From the NCBI RefSeq assembly GCF_001278845.1, contig NZ_CP012590.1, positions 310,001-374,000 on the forward strand: DNA of 64,000 bases, written 5' to 3'. A model generated the notes under the pieces. It was given only the letters and a program-made list of their open reading frames with translations. It did not search any database and was not told the DNA's origin. The position numbers and the translations under genes were made by a program. Below are positions 1 to 42,295 of this stretch, in pieces. Origin of the DNA: Actinomyces sp. oral taxon 414 (lineage in GTDB: Bacteria; Actinomycetota; Actinomycetes; Actinomycetales; Actinomycetaceae). Every line of letters begins with the position of its first letter. Positions within the stretch are counted from its first letter, which is position 1.

Positions 1-83
1 ACCCGACTGCGACTTCACCGAAACCGCGGAATCATGCGGAATTCGTAGAGCTCATCCGGGGTGCCCGCGCGAACGATCCTCCC
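1..83 (-). repeat. Hairpin repeat family 2, cut by the window edge
   Basis: Read on the minus strand, this stretch matches 37589-37692: a GGGAGGATCGTTC arm, then a core containing TTCCGCATGATTCCGCGG, then CGCAGTCGGGT. The 37.6-kb copy is closed by an inverted arm (GGAACGATCCTCCC), which here would lie just outside the window. The two copies are in opposite orientation. It is non-coding as far as can be seen; the short open frames across it are incidental. The remaining sequence to about 290 shows no recognisable gene. Confidence 0.7.
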
Positions 84-294
84 AGAGCGCCAAAAACCGA
101 CCCTCCGCCCGGTGGTCGGGCCGCCGGGTCCGCGGCGGGGCCCGCTGCGGGCGTCGTCTGGGGAGGGCCGTCGCGGGAACGGGGCCCGCCCGCCGGCGGA
201 CACCGCCCGGCGCGCGATGGGCGACGGCCTGGAATCTCGTCCATGACGGGCGCGACGCATCGCCCGACGCGCGCAACGATCGCCGGCGCTCCGC

Positions 295-5244: not shown

Positions 5245-5954
5245 GGCCCCTCCCCCCGGAGGGGGTCGAGGGGTATCCGCCGAGTGGGGCTGCGGGGGTC
5301 TTTGAGGGCGGCGCTGATCTACATGCGTCACAACATTCCGCAGACGGTGATCGGCGAACAATTGGATGTGTCCCAGCCCACTGTCTCGCGGGCCATCAAG
5401 GTCATGACCGGGGCGATCATCCTGGCCCTGAGGGACATGCTGCTCACCGCGGAGGAGGTGCCCGAGGGCTGCGACTGTCGTGCTGGACGGCCACCTCTTC
5501 CCCTGCTGGAGTTGGCGCGCTCACCGCGAACCATGGTCGCGGTGAGCACAAGACGACCGGCATGAACGCCTCTGATCCTGGTCCTGCCCAACGGCAGACT
5601 CGTGTGGGCCTGGGACCCCTACCCCGGCTCCATGCACGACGTGGCCGCACCAGGCGCCTTCCGGACTGCTCGACGGCCTGGACCCCTCCGGATGGATCGC
5701 CGACAAGGGATACATCGGCAAGGGAATGATCACCCCGCACAAGAAGCCCCCCAACGGCGAACTGAGCGAAGCCGCCGAAGAGGCGAATAAGAGCATCAGC
5801 CGGATCCGCCAGGTGGTCGAGCAGACCATCGCCCACATCAAGGCCTGGAGAATCCACCCACACCGACTACCGCCGCCCCCTGCACACATTCGAACAGACC
5901 ATCACCGCCGCACTCTCACTCTACGTCTTCAAAACCACCCACTGAATAACCTTC
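5245..5954 (+). pseudogene. IS5-family transposase remnant (C-terminal part) with right end
   Basis: Fragments of one IS5-family (DDE_Tnp_4-like) transposase can be read in changing frames: EGVEGYPPS, then MGLRGSLRAALIYMRHN and SQPTVSRAIKVMTG (helix-turn-helix), then VLDGHLFPCWSW, GEHKTTGMN, NGRLVWAWDPYPGSMHD, ITPHKKPPNGELSEA and NKSISRIRQVVEQTIAHIKAW. At least four frame changes show that it is dead. The coding remnant ends just before CCACTGAATAACCTTC at 5939-5954, which matches in inverse the left end of the second fragment at 6272-6288. These are therefore the element's inverted repeats. The N-terminal part and the left end are missing here. Confidence 0.82.
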
Positions 5955-6022
5955 ATCGTTACCGCGCGGGTCGCGTCGCGCCCGCACTAACACGTCGAAA
6001 ACCCCGAACACCAGACAACCGT

Positions 6023-6288
6023 TTACTGACTTTGCCAACCCCCTGGCGCTGCCCCCAGGGAGTCCCTCAGCCCCATGCTCGGCGGATACACCTCGACTCC
6101 CTCCTCGCGCAGGCGGATGAGCAGATCGGCAAACTCGACGGCGGGCAGCCCCGTGGTATAATCCATGACGATGGTCCGTTTCTCGTGAGGTCGTCGACGA
6201 TGTTCGCCAGTCATTATGCCTCATGGGGGTGGATCATCATAATTTCCTTTCCCGGAAATGCGCGCAGACGTCCACTGAATAAGCTTCC
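6023..6288 (-). pseudogene. IS5-family transposase remnant (N-terminal part) with left end
   Basis: On the minus strand MDYTTGLPAVEF, ADLLIRLREEGVEVYPPS and MGLRDSL overlap and extend upstream the N-terminal region of the neighbouring plus-strand remnant (EGVEGYPPS, MGLRGSLRAALIYMRHN). This is a second, oppositely oriented fragment of the same transposase, broken off after about 60 residues. The element end GGAAGCTTATTCAGTGG (minus strand, 6288 to 6272) lies about 75 bases before the open frame. With the other fragment's end it defines the IS termini as GGAAGSTTATTCAGTGG. An inversion or two insertions would explain the arrangement. Confidence 0.72.
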
Positions 6289-6363
6289 TGGTTCACGGAA
6301 TATGGTGGTCCAACGGCACGCAAGTGATCCAAACGGATCGGCCGCGTCGCGACATGCGAGACG

Positions 6364-6384
6364 CTGTCCCGCCATGCGGGACAG
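6364..6384. repeat. Short perfect hairpin at the inner edge of mobile element copy A
   Basis: CTGTCCCGC and GCGGGACAG form a 9-bp stem around a CAT loop. It starts exactly where copy A stops matching copy D (the shared CACCACCG), where copy D instead carries a GGAAGGTTATT-type end. Confidence 0.5.
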
Positions 6385-6445
6385 CCGGTGGTGCGGGGCG
6401 CCCGGGGATCGGCGTGGCGGTCCGTGAGATCGCCGGGTAACCCTC

Positions 6446-6512
6446 GAGATCGCCGGGTAACCCGTGAGAACGTCTGCTAGAGGTACGTTCTCGTGGGTTA
6501 AGTGGCGATCTC
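6446..6512. repeat. Second hairpin module of copy A (13-base loop)
   Basis: Arms of 27 bases (6446-6472 and 6486-6512, closing with GAGAACG/CGTTCTC and ending GAGATCGCC/GGCGATCTC) pair with five mismatches around the loop TCTGCTAGAGGTA. Copy D has the exact reverse complement of this loop. Copy E has the same geometry with a different loop and arms. Confidence 0.65.
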
Positions 6513-6692
6513 GCGGATCGGGGGTGCCTGCGCGCGGGCCGGGCGGCGCTCTTGTGGGGGCGGCGCGGTCGAACGGGGCGTCCGCCCGGTCTGCGACCGC
6601 CCTCCGTGCGGATGCCCACGCTGGTGTTGACATCATGGGCCTCGCCGAGGCGGGGAACGCCCTCCCCGGCCGGTCCGCGGCGGCGCCAGTTG

Positions 6693-6808
6693 TCCAAATC
6701 TGCCACAAAGACCTGGATCGGGCCGGAGCGTGCGAGAAGAAACGTTGATATTCCGCGGTTTCATTCGCGGCCGATCTCGCCGCGGGGCGCCTTTGTGGCA
6801 GATTTGGA
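6693..6808 (+). repeat. 116-bp inverted-repeat module, copy A
   Basis: Perfect 18-bp terminal inverted repeats TCCAAATCTGCCACAAAG / CTTTGTGGCAGATTTGGA bound a core with CGTTGATATTCCGCGGTTTC. The other copies (14935-15050, 37801-37916, 39608-39723) have exactly the same length, and cores in both orientations. Confidence 0.85.
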
Positions 6809-6900
6809 CACGCCCCCGCCCCGGCCGACCCCACAAGCCCCACCCGCCCCACCCGGACGACCCCAGAATAACCTTCCCAAACCAGAGCGCGCCGGGCCAG

Positions 6901-14890: not shown

Positions 14891-14934
14891 CTGGGGCGGG
14901 TGGGGCTCCTGGGGCGACCCGGAGCGGGGGCGTG

Positions 14935-15050
14935 TCCACATCTGCCACAAAGGCGCCCCGGGCCGGGATCAGCCGCGAAGAAAAGCGCGGAATATCAACG
15001 ATTCTTTTCCGGCGTTCCGGCTCGATCGGGGTCTTTGTGGCGGATTTGGA
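14935..15050 (-). repeat. 116-bp inverted-repeat module, copy B
   Basis: Terminal repeats TCCACATCTGCCACAAAG and CTTTGTGGCGGATTTGGA (two changes from the perfect form) bound a core with AATATCAACG, that is, inverted relative to copies A and C. The left flank (GGGGCGGGTGGGGCTCCTGG) and the right flank (CCGCCGCCGCGGGCCGGCC) still match the larger element. No GGAAGGTTATT end or second hairpin is present, so this is a truncated copy. Confidence 0.8.
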
Positions 15051-15111
15051 CAATCCGCCGCCGCGGGCCGGCCGGGGAGGGCGTTCGCGGACGGGCCGGA
15101 CCGGCGCCCGG

Positions 15112-34692: not shown

Positions 34693-35958
34693 ATGAGAAC
34701 CGGACGCGAGACGGCGGCGCGGCCCGCGGGGGCGCAGTCGCGGTCGGCGGCGGCGCGGCCCGCGCAGTCGCGACCCGCGGCGGGCACCACCGGCCCGCTG
34801 GCCCGCACCCGCTTCGCCACGTGGGCGCCGCGGCGGCGCACCCACCTGCTGTGCGTGGCCTGTGCGGGCCTTCTCGTCCTGTTCTCCACCACGGGCATGT
34901 ACCCGCTGCACCCCGAGTGGATCGGGCACCAGGTGGCCGGGGGCCTGGGCGTGGCCCTGGTGTCGGTGTGGCCGCTGGGGGGCGGTGCGCTCAGCCTCCT
35001 GGCCTCGGGCGTCTTTCAGGTGGTGGCGCGCGGGGCCGTCGGCCCCGTGCTGCCCGCGCTCGGACCGTGGCTGTGCGCCTCGGTCCTCCTGTCGCGCGGC
35101 TTCAACCGCGTGGTGGCCTACGGCCTGGCGGCCCTCAATGTCGCCCTCGAGTACGTCACATTCCAGTTGAGCGCGCGACCGAGCTACGAGTCGGAATTCT
35201 ACGTGATGCTAGGAGGCGCGGGCTGCTTCTTCCTGATCATCGCCGAGCTCATGCGCCACCCGCGCCGCCAGGCCGACGCGGTGGCCGACCGCTACCGGGA
35301 GGACCTGGAGCGCCAGCGCCTCCTCGTGGTCTCCGAACTGCACGACACAGTCGTGCGCGACCTCACCCGGGCGGTCATGACCGCCGAGCAGTCCCGGCTC
35401 GCCCAGCCCGGCGCCGCGCTCGCCCGCGATCTGAGCGCGCTCACGGCCTCCGTGCGCACCGCCGTCGAGCAGCTGCGGGGCAGCCTGCGGGCCATGAGCG
35501 ACGCCGGCGGGGCCTCCGGTCTGGACGTTCTGGCCTCCTCCGCACCCCGCCCCCTGGCCGAGGTCGTCGACGAGGCCCGCCTCATCCTCGCCGGCCGCGG
35601 GATCGCCCTGGAGGCGGTCGGCCTGGAGGCGCTCGACGCCGACACCGTGCCGCCGGGCGTGCACCAGCAGCTCGTGCGCGTCCTCAGCGAACTGGTGAGC
35701 AATACGGCCAGGTACGCGGCGCCCGGCGGCGCCCGGCTCGTCGTCGGGACCGACGGGCGGAGCCTGAGGGCCGTGGTCTCCAACGCCGTCCCGGCGGCGG
35801 GGCCGGGGGAGTCGGACGCCCCCGTCCTGCCCGGCCTGGGGCTGACGGGGGCGCGACGGCGCGTCGAGTCGCTGGGCGGGGCCTTCGATGTCGCCCGCGC
35901 GCAGGGCCGGTGGACCGTGTCCCTGAGCGTGCCGCTGCCGCGGAAGGCGATGCCGTGA
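34693..35958 (+). CDS. Sensor histidine kinase 1 (HisKA_3 type)
   Basis: A 421-residue kinase. An N-terminal 40-residue cytoplasmic stretch is followed by four or five hydrophobic helices (about residues 50-180) with little extracellular sequence, as in intramembrane-sensing kinases. The dimerisation/phosphoacceptor segment is LLVVSELHDTVVRDLTRAV, with the phospho-His in ELHD. The HATPase_c region carries LVRVLSELVSNTARYA (N box) and GLGLTGARRRVESLGG (G box). The stop overlaps the next kinase's GTG start by two bases. It is very similar to that kinase, with near-identical DNA over the phosphoacceptor region, so the two arose by tandem duplication. The partner is probably the divergent NarL-type regulator. 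Confidence 0.92.
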   Translation: MRTGRETAARPAGAQSRSAAARPAQSRPAAGTTGPLARTRFATWAPRRRTHLLCVACAGLLVLFSTTGMYPLHPEWIGHQVAGGLGVALVSVWPLGGGALSLLASGVFQVVARGAVGPVLPALGPWLCASVLLSRGFNRVVAYGLAALNVALEYVTFQLSARPSYESEFYVMLGGAGCFFLIIAELMRHPRRQADAVADRYREDLERQRLLVVSELHDTVVRDLTRAVMTAEQSRLAQPGAALARDLSALTASVRTAVEQLRGSLRAMSDAGGASGLDVLASSAPRPLAEVVDEARLILAGRGIALEAVGLEALDADTVPPGVHQQLVRVLSELVSNTARYAAPGGARLVVGTDGRSLRAVVSNAVPAAGPGESDAPVLPGLGLTGARRRVESLGGAFDVARAQGRWTVSLSVPLPRKAMP

Positions 35959-37262
35959 GCGCCGTCGGTCCGGAGAACGAGAGGGGCGGACGGGGCGCCG
36001 CGCGGACGATGCTGTGGAGCGCCACGAACTTCGCCACCTGGTCGCCGCGGCGGCGCACCCACCTGCTGTACGCGCTGGCCGCGGGTCTCTTCACCCTGCA
36101 ATCCATGGTGTACGACGGCTCGTCGAGCCCGGAGATCTGGTTCATACTGGTCTCGGGCCTCGCCGTGGCCCTGGTCTCCGTGCGGCCCGCGGTGGGCGGC
36201 GCGCTCAGTCTCCTGAGCTTCCTGGCCGCTCACGCGATGATCCGCGGCGAGTTCCCGCTCCCGGTCATCGTGGGTCCGTGGCTGTGCGCCGCGATTCTCC
36301 TCACCCGCGGATTCCCCCGCGTGGCGGCCTACGGCCTGGTGGCCCTGAGCACCGCGGTGGGGTTCATCCCCTTCGCGTCCGTGAACTCCAACGAATACAC
36401 GGCGCTCATGATCGTCTACGGGCCCGTCCTCCTGGTCGTCGCCGAGCTCGTGCGCCGCCCGCGCCAGCAGGCCGACGCGGTGGCCGACCGCTACCGGGAG
36501 GACCTGGAGCGCCAGCGCCTCCTCGTGGTCTCCGAACTGCACGACACGGTCGTGCGCGACCTCACCCGGGCGGTCACGGCCGCCGAGCAGGCCCGACTCG
36601 CCCAGCCGCGCAATGCCCCGCTCTCCCCCGAGCTCGCGGCCATGACGGCCTCCGTGCGCACCGCCGTCGAGCAGCTGCGGGGCAATCTGCGGGCCGTGAA
36701 CGACGCCGAGGGCACCGCCGGTCTGGACGTTCTGGCCTCCTCCGCCCCCCGCCCCCTGGCCGAGGTCGTCGACGAGACCCGCGCCGCCCTCGCCGGGCGC
36801 GGGATCGCCCTGGAGGCGGTCGGCCTGGAGGCGCTCGACGCCGACGCCGTGCCGCCGGGCGTGCGCCAGCAGCTCGCGCGCGTCCTGGGCGAGCTGGTGA
36901 GCAATATGACCAAGTACGCGGCGCCCGGCAGCGCCCGGATCCTCATGGAGACCGACGGGCGGAGCCTGGAGGCCATGGTCTCCAACGCCGTCGCGCCGGA
37001 GCGGGGAGGCGGGCGGCACCATGGGCCGGCTGGGCCGGGAGGCGGGCGGCGCGACGGATCCACGGCCGGGCCGGGAGGCGGGCGGGCCGGGCGGGATGTG
37101 CCCTGGCGCGGGCCGGAGGCGAGGGACTCCGCCGTCTTCTCCTCCGGGCTCGGCCTGCCCGGGGCCAGGCGCAGGGTGGAGGCACTGGGCGGCACCTTCG
37201 ACGTCGCCCGCACCTCCGAGCGCTTCACCGTGGTCCTATCCGTGCCGCTCCAGATCCGGTAG
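35955..37262 (+). CDS. Sensor histidine kinase 2 (tandem duplicate)
   Basis: A 435-residue paralogue of the preceding kinase with the same layout: short N terminus, FATWSPRRRTHLLYALAAGL, four to five membrane helices, phospho-His in LLVVSELHDTVVRDLTRAV, N box LARVLGELVSNMTKYA and G box SSGLGLPGARRRVEALGG. It differs by a Gly/Arg-rich insertion between N and G boxes (GRHHGPAGPGGGRRDG and following, about 50 residues), which could alter the ATP lid. With only one regulator nearby, the two kinases may form homo- or heterodimers that respond to different signals. The GTG at 35955 overlaps the first kinase's TGA. Confidence 0.9.
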   Translation: MSAVGPENERGGRGAARTMLWSATNFATWSPRRRTHLLYALAAGLFTLQSMVYDGSSSPEIWFILVSGLAVALVSVRPAVGGALSLLSFLAAHAMIRGEFPLPVIVGPWLCAAILLTRGFPRVAAYGLVALSTAVGFIPFASVNSNEYTALMIVYGPVLLVVAELVRRPRQQADAVADRYREDLERQRLLVVSELHDTVVRDLTRAVTAAEQARLAQPRNAPLSPELAAMTASVRTAVEQLRGNLRAVNDAEGTAGLDVLASSAPRPLAEVVDETRAALAGRGIALEAVGLEALDADAVPPGVRQQLARVLGELVSNMTKYAAPGSARILMETDGRSLEAMVSNAVAPERGGGRHHGPAGPGGGRRDGSTAGPGGGRAGRDVPWRGPEARDSAVFSSGLGLPGARRRVEALGGTFDVARTSERFTVVLSVPLQIR

Positions 37263-37450: not shown

Positions 37451-37588
37451 GGAAGGTTATTCTGGGTGTGTCTGGGTGGGGCGTATGGGGCTTGTGGGGC
37501 GGGGTGTGTCCGAATCTGTTGCACGGGCGCTCCGTGGCGGGGTCGGGGGCGAGCGGGGCCCGGGGTCCGGACCCGATTCTGGCGTCCT

Positions 37589-37692
37589 GGGAGGATCGTT
37601 CGGGCCCCCGCCCCGGGTGTGTCTGTCGGTTTCCGCATGATTGCGCGGTTCTGACGGTCTCGCAGTCGGGTGCGCCCCGGAACGATCCTCCC
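37589..37692 (+). repeat. Hairpin repeat family 2, complete copy
   Basis: Inverted arms GGGAGGATCGTTCGGG and CCGGAACGATCCTCCC (one mismatch) enclose about 72 bases with TTCCGCATGATTGCGCGG and CGCAGTCGGGTG. The other copy is at the window start, inverted. The core resembles that of the 116-bp module: both families have an ATTCCGCGGTTTC-like word. Confidence 0.7.
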
Positions 37693-37800
37693 GGGGTGTC
37701 ATGTTCGGCCCCGGGAGGGGCGGCGAGAAGCGGAACCTGAGACAGATGGGGTGCGCGGGTGGCGTGGGACCAGTCGGACCCGGTCCGGACCCGGTCCGTG

Positions 37801-37916
37801 TCCAAATCTGCCACAAAGGCCCGGATCGAGTCGGGGCGCGCAAGAAGAATCGTTGATATTCCGCGGTTTCCTCCGCGACCTATCCCGGCCCGGGGCGCCT
37901 TTGTGGCAGATTTGGA
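37801..37916 (+). repeat. 116-bp inverted-repeat module, copy C
   Basis: Perfect 18-bp terminal repeats and the core CGTTGATATTCCGCGGTTTC, in the same orientation as copy A. It lies just before the IS30 left end. Confidence 0.85.
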
Positions 37917-37929
37917 CACGACCCCGGGC

Positions 37930-39393
37930 GGGTTCTGGTGGTGGATGCACCATTCCGTGGGAGGGGTGTTCTGTGTCTGGGACTCGGTTTGATCGGGGTG
38001 TTCGTCGGGATGCGGTGGCGCGGGTGGCGGCTGGTGAGTCGGCCTCGGCGGTGGCTCGGGACGTGGGGTGCCGGCACGAGACGGTGAGCCGGTGGTGCCG
38101 GGAGGCGGGGGTGGTCCTGGTCAGGGGGCGTCGGGGCGGGTCTTTCGAGGCCGACCGGGCCAGGCGCGCCCAGGTTGTCCTGGCCGTCCTGGGCGGGGCG
38201 GGCCTGCCCGGGGCCGCGGCCGTCGCCGGGGTGTGTCGGCAGTCGGCGAGCCGGTACTGGCACGATCAGGTCATGGAGACGGCAAGGGCGGCATCGGCGC
38301 GGTCATCGGCGCGCTCGTCGGGGCGGCGGTGCTGCCACGGCCTGTCGGGCAGCGCCTGCTCGGGGCGGGTCGGGCGCGGGCGGCGCCTGAGCGACGCCGA
38401 GCGGGTCCTGATCGCTCAGGGCCGGGCCCGGGGCGAGTCGGCCGCGGCCATCGCCCGCGCCCTGGGCAGGTGCCGTCAGACCATCTCTCGGGAGATCGCC
38501 CGTAACACCAGCCCTGACGGGGTCTACCGGGCCCCGGAGGCCTCGACGGCGGCCCGGGGGCGTCTGGCCCGCCCCAAGACGCGGCGTCTGGATGCCGACC
38601 CCGCCCTGCGCGCCGAGGTGGTGGCCCTGCTCGAGGACGGGGCCAGTCCCCGCCAGATCAGTGCGCGCCTGCGCTGGGCCCACCCCGACAATGAGGCCAT
38701 GCGCATATCCCATGAGCAGATCTACCAGGCCCTCTACGTCCAGGGAGCCGGTTCCCTGCGCCAGCAGCTGAAGGTGGACAAGGCCCTGCGCTCGGGGCGC
38801 ACCCGGCGCCTGCCCCGCTCACCGCTGGCCGGCCTGCCCCGCAGGTCGAACCGCTCGTGGATCGAGGGGGCCCGGATCAGTGCGCGCCCGCCCGAGGCCG
38901 ACGACCGGGCCGTGCCGGGCCACTGGGAGGGCGACCTGGTCATCGGCGCCGGCGGGCGCAGCGCCCTGATCACCCTGGTGGAGCGCACCAGCCGCTTCGT
39001 GCTCATACACCGCCTGGGCGCCTGCCACGACTCGGGCACCGTTACCGACGCCCTGCAGACCATGGTCGCCGACCTGCCCCGGGCCGTGCGGGCCTCGATC
39101 ACCTGGGACCAGGGCAGTGAGATGGCCCAGCACGCCGGCTTCACCGCCGTCACCGGCATCCCGGTCTACTTCGCCGACCCCCACAGCCCCCGCTCAGCGT
39201 CCCACCAACGAGAACACAGGCGGACTGATCCGCGAGTACTTCCCCAAGGGCACCAGCTTCACCGACGTCACCGACGCCCAGGTCCAGGCCGTCCAGGACC
39301 GCCTCAACCGCCGACCCCGCCTGGTCTTGAACGGACAGACCCCAGCTGAGAAAATCAACGACATCATCAACGGTGCAAACACCACCAGAACCC
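37930..39393 (+). mobile_element. IS30-family insertion sequence
   Basis: Terminal inverted repeats of 22 bp, starting GGGTTCTGGTGGTG at 37930 and ending CACCACCAGAACCC at 39393, match at 20 of 22 positions. The 1464-bp element contains one transposase gene filling most of it. No clear target duplication is seen next to the ends. It is inserted in a copy of the non-coding element family. Confidence 0.8.
37973..39393 (+). pseudogene. IS30-family transposase with a +1 frameshift
   Basis: Reading starts at a GTG preceded by GGGAGGGG. An N-terminal HTH (DAVARVAAGESASAVARDVG) is followed by the IS30 HTH_38-like region (ARGESAAAIARALGRCRQTI) and the DDE catalytic domain (GHWEGDLVIGAGGRSALI with the first Asp, ITWDQGSEMAQHAGF with the second, VYFADPHSP). 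Right after DPHSP one extra base near 39197-39200 moves the frame. The catalytic Glu in TNENTGGLIREYFPKG and the C terminus (NRRPRLVLNGQTPAEKIND) are then in another frame. IS30 elements do not normally use frameshifting, so this copy is probably inactive unless the base is a sequencing error. Confidence 0.88.
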
Positions 39394-39426
39394 ACGCCGC
39401 CCCGGGTCGCCCCAGAATAACCTTCC

Positions 39427-39460: not shown

Positions 39461-39607
39461 CCGCCGCCCCGCGACCCGTCCTTGCTTTATTGCGCGTGGA
39501 TAAAGCCTAATAAAACTTCTCATGAACCTTTCCCACCAGGAAGGTTATTACGGAGGTGTCTGCATGATGCTGGTGGGACTCCTGTGGCGACCTGGGGCGA
39601 GGGCGTG

Positions 39608-39723
39608 TCCAAATCTGCCACAAAGGCGCTCCGCGGCGGTATCGGCCGCGAAGAAAAGCGCGGAATATCAACGTTTTTTCTCGCGCGTTCCGGCTCGATA
39701 CGGGTCTTTGTGGCAGATTTGGA
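39608..39723 (-). repeat. 116-bp inverted-repeat module, copy D
   Basis: Perfect 18-bp terminal repeats; core with GCGGAATATCAACG, inverted relative to A and C like copy B. Confidence 0.85.
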
Positions 39724-39904
39724 CAACTGGCGCCGCCGCGGGCCCCGTGGGGAGGGCGGTCGCCCGCCTCGGCGAGGTCCATGACGTCGACACCGGCGTG
39801 GGCATCCGCGCGGAGGGCGGTCGCAGACCGGGCGGACGCGCTGTTCGACCGCGCCGGCCCCGCCCGAGCGCCGCCGCGGGGCTGGCGCAGGCGCCCCGAT
39901 CCGC

Positions 39905-39971
39905 GAGATCGCCACTTAACCCACGAGAACGTACCTCTAGCAGACGTTCTCGAGGGTTACCCGGCGATCTC
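39905..39971. repeat. Second hairpin module of copy D
   Basis: Arms 39905-39931 and 39945-39971 (GAGATCGCC...GAGAACG / CGTTCTC...GGCGATCTC) around the loop TACCTCTAGCAGA. The right arm is followed by three more copies of its CGGCGATCTCG end to about 40033. Confidence 0.7.
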
Positions 39972-40090
39972 GGCGGTTAAGTGGCGATCTCGCGGGTTAC
40001 CCGGCGATCTCGCGGGTTACCCGGCGATCTCGCGGACCGCGCCGCCGATCCCCGGGCGCCCCACACCACCGCCCGCTGAATAACCTTCCA

Positions 40091-40370
40091 GGAAGGTTAT
40101 TCCGGAGACATCTGAGTGTGTTGTGTGATGCGGATCATTGGGAGGTGGGTGTGTGGGGCCGTGGGCCCGGTCGTGGTGGTCCCGGGCCCTACCGCCCCGG
40201 CCTTTTCACGACGGGGGTTGGTCCATGAGGACGGGGGTTGACCCATGAGCACGGGTGCTAAACCCTCGTTCTCATGGGTCAACCCCCGTTCTCAACGGTC
40301 AACCCCCGTTCTCGCGGGTCGGGCGGCGCTCGGGCGGGGCGTCCGCCCGGTCCGTGACCGCCCGCCCCGC
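40091..40370. mobile_element. Element remnant, copy E, abutting copy D and upstream of lysS
   Basis: Starts with GGAAGGTTATTCCGG one base after copy D ends, so the two ends form a near-perfect palindrome. It has no 116-bp module. It keeps a hairpin of the second type and, to its right, GGGCGGCGCTCGGGCGGGGC and GTCCGCCCGGTCCGTGACCG, which match the flank of copy A's hairpin. The far end is not clear; about 75 bases remain to the lysS start. Confidence 0.55.
40230..40291. repeat. Hairpin with 13-base loop upstream of lysS (copy E)
   Basis: Arms GACGGGGGTTGACCCATGAG... (40230-40253) and CGTTCTCATGGGTCAACCCC... (40267-40291) pair almost fully around GGTGCTAAACCCT. A half-repeat CGGTCAACCCCCGTTCTC follows. 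The geometry equals that of copies A and D, while the arm sequence differs on both sides together, which suggests that pairing is maintained. Confidence 0.65.
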
Positions 40371-40431
40371 CGGCCCCGCCGGCCACGGCAACCATGCCGG
40401 CCCGCGGGGGCGCCGCCGGCGCGCGCCCGGC

Positions 40432-40437
40432 TAGACT
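40432..40437 (+). promoter_or_regulatory. Probable -10 box of leaderless lysS
   Basis: TAGACT ends seven bases before the GTG at 40445 and there is no ribosome-binding site, as expected for a leaderless transcript. No convincing -35 is seen. Confidence 0.45.
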
Positions 40438-40444
40438 CGCGCGC

Positions 40445-42295
40445 GTGAGTGACGCGATCCAGCAGAACGACCCTCCCCAGTCCGACGTTGCCCGACCTGA
40501 CGCCGCGGCCCCGCAGGAGACCGCTCGCCCCGAACACGCCGGGCGAACCGGGCGGGCCGGACAAACCGAGCAGACCGGGCGGACCGAACACGCCGGGCGA
40601 ACCGGGCAGCCCGGGCAGACTGGACAAACCGGGCGAGCCGGACAGTCCGGGCAGTCCGGACAGTCCGGGCAGGCGGGATCGGCCGGACAGGCCGGGCAGG
40701 CCGGGCAGGAGGCGGGCCCCGGCGAGCAGTTCGCCGTCCGCGCCGCCAAGCGCGAGCGCCTGCGCGCCGAGGGCTGGGAGCCCTACCCGGTCCGGCTGCC
40801 GATCACCACCACGATCGCCGCCGTCCGCGAGCGCTACGGGCACCTGCAGGCCGGCCAGGAGACCGACGACGTCGTCGGCGTCGCCGGGCGCGTCGTCTTC
40901 CTGCGCAACACCGGCCGACTGTGCTTCGCCACCCTGGCCGACGGCGCCGGCACCACCCTCCAGGCGATGCTGTCGGCCAAGGCCCTGCCCGGCTCCGGCC
41001 ACACATCCCTGGCGGCCTTCAAGTCCGACGTCGACCTGGGCGACCACGTCTTCGTCCACGGCCGCGTCATCTCCTCGCGCCGCGGGGAGCTGTCGGTCAT
41101 GGCCGAGCCCCTCCTGCGTGAGGGCGCCGGGGCCGCCGACCTGCCCGGGGCGGGGGACGACGACGTCGTCGTGCCCGCCTGGCGCATCGCCTCCAAGGCC
41201 CTGCGCCCGCTGCCCAAGGTGTGGACGAACGAGGCGGGCGAGGAGGTCAGCCTCAGCGAGGACAACCGGGTGCGCCGTCGCGAGCTGGACCTGCTCACCC
41301 GCCCGGCCGCGCGCGACATGGTGCGCACCCGCGCCGCCGTCGTGCGCTCCCTGCGGGACAATTTCCACCGCCGCGACTACCTGGAGCTGGAGACCCCCAT
41401 GCTCCAGGTCATTCACGGCGGGGCGGCCGCGCGCCCGTTCATCACCCACATGAACGCCTTCGACATGGACCTCTACCTGCGCATCGCCACGGAGATCTAC
41501 CTCAAGCGGGCCGTGGTGGGCGGGGTGGACCGTGTCTTCGAGATCAACCGCAACTTCCGCAACGAGGGCGCCGACTCCTCCCACTCCCCGGAGTTCACCG
41601 CCCTGGAGGCCTACGAGGCCTACTCCGACTACGACGGCATGGCCGAGCTGACCCGCGACCTGGTCCAGCGGGCGGCGCGCGACGCCTTCGGCCTGCCCGA
41701 GGGCGGGGAGGTCGTCACCCTGGCCGACGGCACCGAGTACGACCTGTCCGGCCAGTGGGACAAGGTCGACCTGTACACCTCCGTCTCCGAGGCCCTGGGC
41801 GAGGAGATCACCGTGGACACCCCGCGCGAGCGCCTGGCGGCCATCGCCGGGAAGCTGGACCTGGAGGTCGACGACTACGCCGTGGCCGGCAAGATCGTGG
41901 AGGACGTCTTCGAGGAGCTCGTCGGCAACAAGCTGTGGGCGCCCACCTTCGTCTACGACTTCCCCGAGGACACCTCGCCGCTGACCCGCTACCACCGCTC
42001 CAGGCCGGGCCTGACGGAGAAGTGGGACCTGTACATCCGCGGCTTCGAGACGGCCACCGCCTACTCCGAGCTGGCCGACCCGGTGGTCCAGCGCGAGCGC
42101 TTCGAGGCCCAGGCCCTGGCCGCCGCCAAGGGCGACCCCGAGGCCATGGTCCTGGACGAGGACTTCCTGGTGGCCATGGAGCAGGGCTTCCCGCCCTGCG
42201 GCGGCATGGGCATGGGCATCGACCGCCTCCTCATGGCCCTGACCGGCCAGGGCATCCGCGAGACCATCACCTTCCCGCTGGTGCGGCGGGGCTGA
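40445..42295 (+). CDS. lysS: Lysyl-tRNA synthetase (class II) with a collagen-like N-terminal extension
   Basis: Charges tRNA-Lys. The 616-residue protein has an OB-fold anticodon-binding domain ([40 protein letters not shown]) and the class II catalytic core. Motif 1 is near [18 protein letters not shown], motif 2 is [20 protein letters not shown] and motif 3 is [16 protein letters not shown]. The usual length is about 500; the excess is an N-terminal stretch of about 100 residues. It contains about 19 Gly-X-Y-like triplets ([19 protein letters not shown] and so on, two of them with Glu in place of Gly). The GTG at 40445 is preferred to an upstream ATG because of the -10 box just before it. 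HIGH/KMSKS (class I) motifs are absent. Confidence 0.95.

What the first reader, a model, noticed from the sequence alone, without database searches (positions are those of the whole stretch)
39539..40089. A family of non-coding mobile elements (about 0.5 kb) with two hairpin modules
Copies A (6385-6877, inverted) and D (39539-40089) align almost end to end. B (14935-15050 and flanks), C (37451-39426, split by IS30) and E (40091-40370) are partial. Shared order: GGAAGGTTATT end, short G/T-rich leader, 116-bp inverted-repeat module, GC-rich spacer, hairpin with a 13-base loop and CGGCGATCTC repeats, opposite end. No protein is encoded. Several copies in 64 kb, nested in other repeats, imply an active or recently active non-autonomous element, possibly with a structured RNA or DNA role. 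I know of no described element with this layout, but cannot search.
Basis: partly seen in the sequence, partly recalled or inferred. Interest (0 to 1): 0.8.

Follow-up and report, generated by a model that had tools for sequence, protein, structure and literature searches.

The report
Nuclease-linked twin-arm DNA repeats
Short DNA repeats scattered through Actinomyces genomes end in two matching 20-letter arms set a fixed distance apart, and in most genomes examined the same kind of repeat sits beside the gene for a predicted DNA-cutting enzyme that likely binds the arms and helps the repeats spread; this would be a way for repeats to multiply without a known transposase.

Summary
In detail: D (39539-40089) and its relatives are real repeated non-coding elements. 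Their frame is ordinary, an IS5-type MITE: seven 879-886-bp elements in the same genome share its ends, and 23 of 50 end-bounded elements have identical 3-bp flanks. It is a 120-bp unit with 20-bp arms, 30-bp spacers and a central dyad, at 120 places in this genome; a model of it matches 38 of 49 genomes of the genus. Its length is locked: 83 of 86 own arm rows, and 120 bp in 12 of 12 species at one place. The spacers diverge freely and do not pair. In 28 of 30 genomes examined, such modules flank the gene of an AbiEi-like winged-helix protein with a Vsr/I-Bth0305I-like nuclease fold. Arms differ between species but mostly agree between the gene's flanks and dispersed copies (19 of 22 genomes). 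C also carries a 122-bp module whose arms, at 2-3 mismatches of 18, bracket a second nuclease paralog in the host. Binding, cutting and copying are inferred, not shown. A structured-RNA role is not supported; no RAYT transposase was found in 49 genomes.

The parts
39539..40089 (+). Element D: 551-bp MITE, ends GGAAGGTTATT, 3-bp flanks CAG/CAG if the end is read as GAAGGTTATT
39606..39725 (+). Type-1 module of D, 120 bp: arms TGTCCAAATCTGCCACAAAG, central dyad at the midpoint
   Evidence: R1 99.3 bits
39890..40046 (+). Second module of D: long hairpin built of about 20-bp CGATCTCGCGGGTTACCCGG repeats; role unknown
   Evidence: -90.7 kcal/mol by RNA.fold, 157 nt
40091..40370 (+). Element E: partial, left end plus hairpin of related 20-bp repeats, no 120-bp module
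37451..39426 (+). Element C: about 534-bp type element interrupted by an IS30-family element; flanks CCG/CCG
37580..37701 (-). Type-2 module in C, 122 bp: arms TGGCGTCCTGGGAGGATC / TGACACCCCGGGAGGATC, central dyad (15/16) at the midpoint
37799..37918 (-). Type-1 module in C, 120 bp
   Evidence: R1 101.9 bits
37930..39393 (+). IS30-family insertion inside C; ends read by eye (transposase frame 37670-39349; a conserved C-terminal part lies in another frame)
6385..6877 (-). Element A, inverted copy of D
6691..6810 (-). Type-1 module in A, 120 bp
   Evidence: R1 102.8 bits
14888..15086 (+). B: leader plus type-1 module (14933-15052) without a recognisable MITE end
1..92 (.). Part of a type-2 module cut by the window start: centre CCGCGGAATCATGCGG at 24-39, arm at 75-92
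5726..6424 (+). Fragment of an IS5-type (DDE_Tnp_4) transposase, with ends one letter off GGAAGGTTATT at 5945-5955 and 6278-6288

Best explanation
The 0.5-kb elements are IS5-type MITEs carrying 120-bp and 122-bp twin-arm modules, and modules of each type also lie beside a host gene for a predicted AbiEi-winged-helix/Vsr-fold nuclease that likely binds the arms and drives copying of the modules. Shown: the module is a length-locked DNA unit (arm 20, spacer 30, centre 20, spacer 30, arm 20). It flanks the nuclease gene in 28 of 30 genomes examined, with two modules in 20. Its arms are shared between those flanks and the dispersed copies in 19 of 22 genomes scored, differ between species, and change together on both sides. 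Inferred: two nuclease monomers bind the inverted arms through the AbiEi-like winged helix, as AbiEi binds two 23-bp inverted repeats in its promoter. The fixed spacing then places the nuclease domains on the centre. A nick or cut there is repaired from, or into, another module, which spreads modules and homogenises their arms. In this species an IS5-type MITE captured both module types and multiplied them further. The closest working analogue is REPIN/RAYT, with a nuclease in place of the RAYT transposase.
Confidence: 0.58

Rival explanations
1. The modules are dispersed operators: an AbiEi-like DNA-binding protein represses itself through the flanking modules and binds the rest as a regulatory or chromosome-organising network; nothing is copied by it.
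For: AbiEi and Rv2827c bind pairs of 23-bp inverted repeats in their own promoters (PMC7319586, passages). 3 of 104 unique modules overlap a called gene, 24 were undetermined, and one is kept in place across 12 species with arms changing together.
Against: Modules also lie 3' of the gene and overlap its end by 41-50 bp in 10 loci. The active-site-like residues are invariant in 35 sequences. Gene orientation around modules is close to baseline (47 co-directional, 21 convergent, 9 divergent against 63/22/15), so no clear promoter or terminator bias. Presence/absence differs between close species at a second place.
Confidence: 0.2
2. Plain MITE biology: the modules are passive cargo of IS5-type MITEs and owe their copy number to the IS5-type transposase alone.
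For: 51 of 83 own modules have the MITE end 40-110 bp upstream; IS5-type elements with the same ends exist. I did not search other genomes for the MITE end.
Against: 32 of 83 own modules lack the end. The module matches 38 of 49 genomes of the genus. This does not explain near-invariant arms, fixed length or the nuclease link.
Confidence: 0.08
3. REPIN-like elements moved by an unknown transposase; the nuclease is a hitchhiking or defence gene that landed among them.
For: Conserved inverted ends, fixed spacing and dispersed single copies resemble REPINs (PMC3116915, passages).
Against: Y1_Tnp (PF01797) in 0 of 49 genomes, with 5 of 14 controls positive. Modules flank the nuclease in 28 of 30 genomes in about 11 flank contexts by protein similarity, and further paralogs with other arms are bracketed too.
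Confidence: 0.09
4. A structured RNA whose long stem is formed by the arms.
For: Arms covary.
Against: Spacers do not pair (39.9% against 41.1% shuffled); G-T and A-C arm mismatches are equal, 45 to 43, so no strand is preferred; no Rfam match beyond tRNAs; length is fixed where an RNA loop could vary.
Confidence: 0.03

Closest known systems
REPIN / RAYT (REP doublets and their tyrosine transposase)
   Same: Short dispersed units with two highly conserved inverted ends and a variable middle, linked to one gene that the repeats flank; repeat and protein appear to co-evolve
   Different: No RAYT found in 49 genomes of the genus; the middle does not pair; total length fixed at 120 (121 in a minority) with a central dyad; partner is an AbiEi-Vsr-type nuclease
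I-Bth0305I / EDxHD (Vsr-like) homing endonucleases
   Different: Free-standing gene between two whole modules, with many other modules in the same genome; winged-helix domain of AbiEi type
AbiEi antitoxin (type IV toxin-antitoxin, AbiE)
   Different: Vsr-like C-terminal domain instead of the antitoxin domain; no nucleotidyltransferase toxin gene in the one annotated neighbourhood read (7 features); repeats dispersed over the genome
IS5-family MITEs
   Same: Ends and 3-bp duplications of the 0.5-kb elements
   Different: They carry two kinds of nuclease-linked modules as cargo
NEMIS/Correia, ERIC and RUP elements
   Same: Roughly 100-170-bp dispersed inverted-repeat elements (recalled; related papers PMC2229807 and PMC2759123 seen as listings only)
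   Different: No nuclease partner that I know of (recalled); a length lock with a midpoint dyad is not something I recall for them. Not compared by sequence here

Membership tests
MITE of an IS5-family element (the 0.5-kb elements) | Ends shared with autonomous IS of the family | tested here: met
   7 end-bounded elements of 879-886 bp in own stretches; transposase pieces of two of them (L088, L063) scanned, both DDE_Tnp_4 (PF13359 2.6e-16 and 2.9e-29) and NF033581 below its 140-bit cut-off
MITE of an IS5-family element (the 0.5-kb elements) | Short target-site duplication | tested here: met
   Identical 3-bp flanks in 23 of 50 end-bounded elements, D included
MITE of an IS5-family element (the 0.5-kb elements) | Moved by that transposase | not testable with these tools
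   needs a transposition assay
REPIN/RAYT | Y1 (RAYT) transposase in the genome | tested here: not met
   PF01797 in 0 of 49 genomes, controls 5 of 14
REPIN/RAYT | Two conserved inverted ends around a variable spacer | tested here: met
REPIN/RAYT | Spacer able to form a hairpin | tested here: not met
   spacer pairing at background
Homing endonuclease of Vsr-like (EDxHD) type | Catalytic-domain fold | tested here: met
Homing endonuclease of Vsr-like (EDxHD) type | Active-site residues kept | tested here: met
   E187, D214, E224, D226, H231 invariant in 35 sequences; that these are catalytic is inferred
Homing endonuclease of Vsr-like (EDxHD) type | Gene inserted in its own recognition site | tested here: inconclusive
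   gene lies between two whole modules and overlaps the 3' one; no empty site of the gene unit was read
Homing endonuclease of Vsr-like (EDxHD) type | Cleaves a specific site | not testable with these tools
   no assay
AbiE toxin-antitoxin | Adjacent nucleotidyltransferase toxin gene | tested here: inconclusive
   Only one annotated neighbourhood read, A. oris WVU627 plasmid record: 7 features, none so named
Structured RNA | Paired stem with wobble bias, or a curated family | tested here: not met

The most novel reading that the evidence does not exclude
A new class of bacterial repeat: twin-arm modules multiplied not by a transposase but by a dedicated AbiEi-Vsr nuclease that binds both arms, cuts at the fixed midpoint and lets repair copy modules from place to place. 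It comes in many arm dialects (120 to about 141 bp), several per genome, and its dispersed sites co-evolve with the nuclease.
Probability: 0.43. Interest if true: 0.9.

Novelty: categorically new. Interest (0 to 1): 0.8.

Why it matters
Dispersed bacterial repeats have few known movers outside the RAYT and IS families. Here a repeat, its dialect and a candidate DNA-binding nuclease are tied together across a genus. That makes the question testable with one protein and a 120-bp DNA. It also gives a natural series of protein-DNA recognition variants (arms and winged helices), and a lead on function for DUF559/Vsr-like proteins, many of which are named only by domain.

Tried and rejected
REPIN/RAYT membership: rejected on PF01797. 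RNA hairpin: rejected on spacer pairing, mismatch symmetry and Rfam. Terminator-like element: gene orientation near baseline. First idea that GGAAGGTTATT is the IS30 end: wrong, corrected. Recombination hot spot at the centre: linkage among own copies decays within 10-20 bp everywhere, not only across the centre, so not supported as such. Outside cellular genomes: the own-species arm (exact) is in no viral contig; D has no match in plasmids or phages; the nuclease gives no phage match and one plasmid record, A. oris WVU627, where two modules flank it. PDB sequence search: none. Ten paper searches: the rows listed held nothing that joins DUF559/AbiEi nucleases to repeats; some searches held more papers than were listed (8 of 115, 8 of 358). 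Papers were seen as listings except passages of PMC3116915, PMC12907096, PMC7319586 and PMC10969869.

Limits of the counts. Places in G001, G003, G004, G010, G012 and part of G009 were fetched with a pattern of fixed length 120, so the length tally of other species (73 of 87 rows at 120, 11 at 121; some places seen twice) leans to 120; own copies, G020-G022, G031, G032 and the 12-species place were not chosen by length. The 67-row alignment left out 7 of 74 non-redundant modules, those of 119 or 121 bp. One search looked at the best homolog of 30 of the 40 genomes with a match; of the other ten, five (G002, G019, G023, G027, G030) were not looked at. The 230-bit threshold was chosen after seeing the list. 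One search scored at most 17 candidates per genome. In some searches the strand of L311, L317 and L326 was picked wrongly; one search used the strands and one search left those three out. One search's control (arm read backwards) gave 10 single hits where the arm gave 24 and 21; the ten pairs at 121-122 bp are copies of one element type, not independent.

Full report
WHAT IS IN THE WINDOW. D (39539-40089) is bounded by GGAAGGTTATT and its reverse complement. If the end is read as GAAGGTTATT, D has CAG on both sides and C has CCG. The window holds four 120-bp type-1 modules, hairpins in D, E and A, and a second kind of module. The whole genome, 3,836,419 bp, has 125 exact ends and 120 places with TGTCCAAATC N100 GATTTGGACA at up to 3 mismatches, where the reversed control gives 0.

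THE MOBILE FRAME IS AN IS5-TYPE MITE. In the 89 stretches plus window that I fetched, 50 end-bounded elements were found, 23 with identical 3-bp flanks. Seven of them, 879-886 bp, show frames of an IS5-type transposase; pieces of two were scanned (PF13359 2.6e-16 and 2.9e-29; NF033581 1.4e-8 and 1.1e-14, under its cut-off). So D, A and the 534-bp type look like non-autonomous partners of that element. C is the 534-bp type interrupted by an IS30-family element; two other IS30 copies, 99.6% and 99.9% identical, lie without GGAAGGTTATT ends.

THE 120-BP MODULE IS SOMETHING ELSE. Own copies were found by single arms; in my stretches 83 of 86 arm rows have a partner exactly 100 bp on. Of the 83, 51 have the MITE end (up to 3 mismatches) 40-110 bp upstream and 32 do not. 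Among 87 rows from other species 73 are 120 bp, 11 are 121, one is 119 and two are overlapping reads of one odd place; part of these places was chosen with a fixed-length pattern, so this tally leans to 120. Sixty-seven modules of 120 bp, under 85% identical, align over 120 columns with no gap; 7 of 119 or 121 bp were left out. Own copies differ by 0.4-1.1% in the arms and 21-22% in the spacers. The layout is arm 20, spacer 30, centre 20 (about AACCGCGGAATCATGCGGTT in most species), spacer 30, arm 20.

DNA RATHER THAN RNA. Arm columns 1-21 with 100-120 pair in 94.5% of cells. For arms plus centre there are 143 two-sided changes against 55.5 in shuffles. Spacer columns pair at 39.9% against 41.1% in shuffles. 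Of the arm mismatches 45 are G-T and 43 A-C. Rfam gives only tRNAs above cut-off. The arms therefore look like two copies of one binding site that change together, not like one stem.

IN-PLACE CONSTRAINT. At one orthologous place, next to the called 3' end of a gene, 12 of 12 species read carry a module of exactly 120 bp although the flanks are full of indels. At a second place seven species have it; G023, G039 and G045 lack it, G035 has other sequence, and G014 was not resolved. Gene orientation around modules is near the baseline: 47 co-directional, 21 convergent, 9 divergent, 3 overlapping and 24 undetermined of 104, against 63/22/15.

DISTRIBUTION. A covariance model of the module (R1) finds matches in 49 of 213 genomes of the family: 38 of 49 in this genus (two of them, G030 and G033, weak), two genomes of a second genus with at least 17 each, and weak matches (1-4 each) in nine genomes of two more genera (at most 17 scored per genome). 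Named holders of the exact own arm include A. dentalis, A. gerencseriae, A. johnsonii and Actinomyces sp. oral taxon 448.

THE NUCLEASE. In several species two modules about 1.14 kb apart enclose one gene of about 350 codons with a DUF559/MTES_1575 nuclease domain, at or below those models' cut-offs. I searched the genus with it (40 of 49 genomes match at 1e-10, paralogs included) and scanned the best-homolog locus of 30 genomes with R1: 28 have one or two modules in the stretch, 20 have two. In most the module lies within about 190 bp of the gene; in L306 one is about 1 kb off, with an IS5-type insertion between. The exceptions are L311, on a 4.9-kb contig, and L329, whose gene is bracketed by paired repeats of another dialect. 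In 10 loci the 3' module overlaps the last 41-50 bp of the open frame. The loci fall into about 11 flank contexts by protein similarity. The host gene is at G000:C1:3115000-3115866, with a lone module without MITE end or leader 184 bp upstream.

COUPLING OF ARMS AND PROTEIN. The arms beside the gene differ strongly between species (for example TGTCCGTCAGAATGACATTGG, TGTCACGATCCAGGCCATTGC, TGTCAAAATCGATGACAAACG) yet agree between the two modules of one locus (median 5% apart, 20 loci) and differ by 35% between loci of proteins over 30% apart. In L319 the arms are 4% apart while the spacers are 78% apart, so shared arms are not simply a recent duplication; in other loci the spacers are close too. 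Seventy-three dispersed modules of 22 genomes match their own genome's arms better (1.27 against 3.33 mismatches in 10; permutation p 0.0005), with G017, G035 and G042 against. Mantel correlation of protein and arm distance is 0.83, but spacers also give 0.43, so phylogeny contributes. All 28 genomes with a homolog of at least 230 bits have modules, against 10 of 21 others.

OTHER DIALECTS. Of 20 more distant paralogs, 6 are bracketed by paired repeats with matching arms (L332, L333, L334, L338, L342, L348), 5 have such a pair on one side and 9 have none; 17 of 200 random window stretches of 580 bp have any such pair. In L348, L352, L360, one module of L334 and the C module the centre lies exactly at the midpoint with 13-16 of 16 letters (99th percentile of random stretches 11); modules of L332, L333, L338, L342, L343, L346, L359 and L363 do not have it. 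The host's second paralog (L348) is bracketed by 122-bp modules with arms TGGCGCTCYGGGAGGATC; ten fetched copies of the 534-bp element type, C among them, carry modules with arms 1-3 letters off, 9 of 122 bp and one of 121. So C carries modules of the kind found at both host nucleases.

HOW IT LIKELY WORKS. Inferred: a nuclease pair sits on the arms, the fixed spacing brings both active sites to the centre, and a nick or cut is repaired with another module as template. That would explain co-changing arms, fixed length, fast-changing spacers and rapid decay of linkage among copies. Capture by an IS5-type MITE would explain the very high copy number here. Against it stand ten genomes with modules but no strong homolog, in-frame stops in 7 of 30 matches, no seen target duplication, and the harm that 120 cuts would do.

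JUDGEMENT. The MITE is ordinary. The module-nuclease pair works like REPIN/RAYT but is not a member (no RAYT found, spacer does not pair), and the rows listed by ten searches of an incomplete paper library described no system that joins such a repeat to such a nuclease.

Noticed in passing
window 37670-39349: The IS30 transposase frame and a conserved C-terminal part of the protein lie in different frames; the two other copies match in the same frame to the same end, so it is shared, either an old defect or a frameshift used by the element.
   Followed up: partly
window 39890-40046, 40205-40330, 6422-6525: Very stable long hairpins made of about 20-bp repeats (-90.7, -85.6 and -54.8 kcal/mol); their origin is unexplained.
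   Followed up: partly
L066, L111, L106, L042: Chimeric own copies: leader also on the downstream side (L066, L111, L106; in L106 the interior is flipped relative to its flanks) and downstream part on both sides (L042, by eye), as expected from recombination between inverted copies.
   Followed up: partly
G005 (A. dentalis), listing: Of 41 listed modules (67 counted), 38 have TGTTGCAAAG inner arms and 3 have TGCCACAAAG, while own copies have TGCCACAAAG; spacers look of the same kind, so the arms seem to have switched in concert between two species.
   Followed up: partly
window 40394-42295: Lysyl-tRNA synthetase with a repetitive collagen-like N-terminal extension (about 40515-40700), next to element E.
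   Followed up: no
window 35062-36914: Direct-repeat pairs (75-93%) about 1.2 kb apart in and around the 34821-37262 frame, suggesting a duplication in a histidine-kinase-like gene.
   Followed up: no
L078, L051, L108, L046 downstream of modules: A GTGATGTCTCAGGACATGGGTGACGGTTCTGTATCAGGACATCGGTGACG-like sequence follows several modules and looks like the end of another insertion sequence (recalled, not tested).
   Followed up: no
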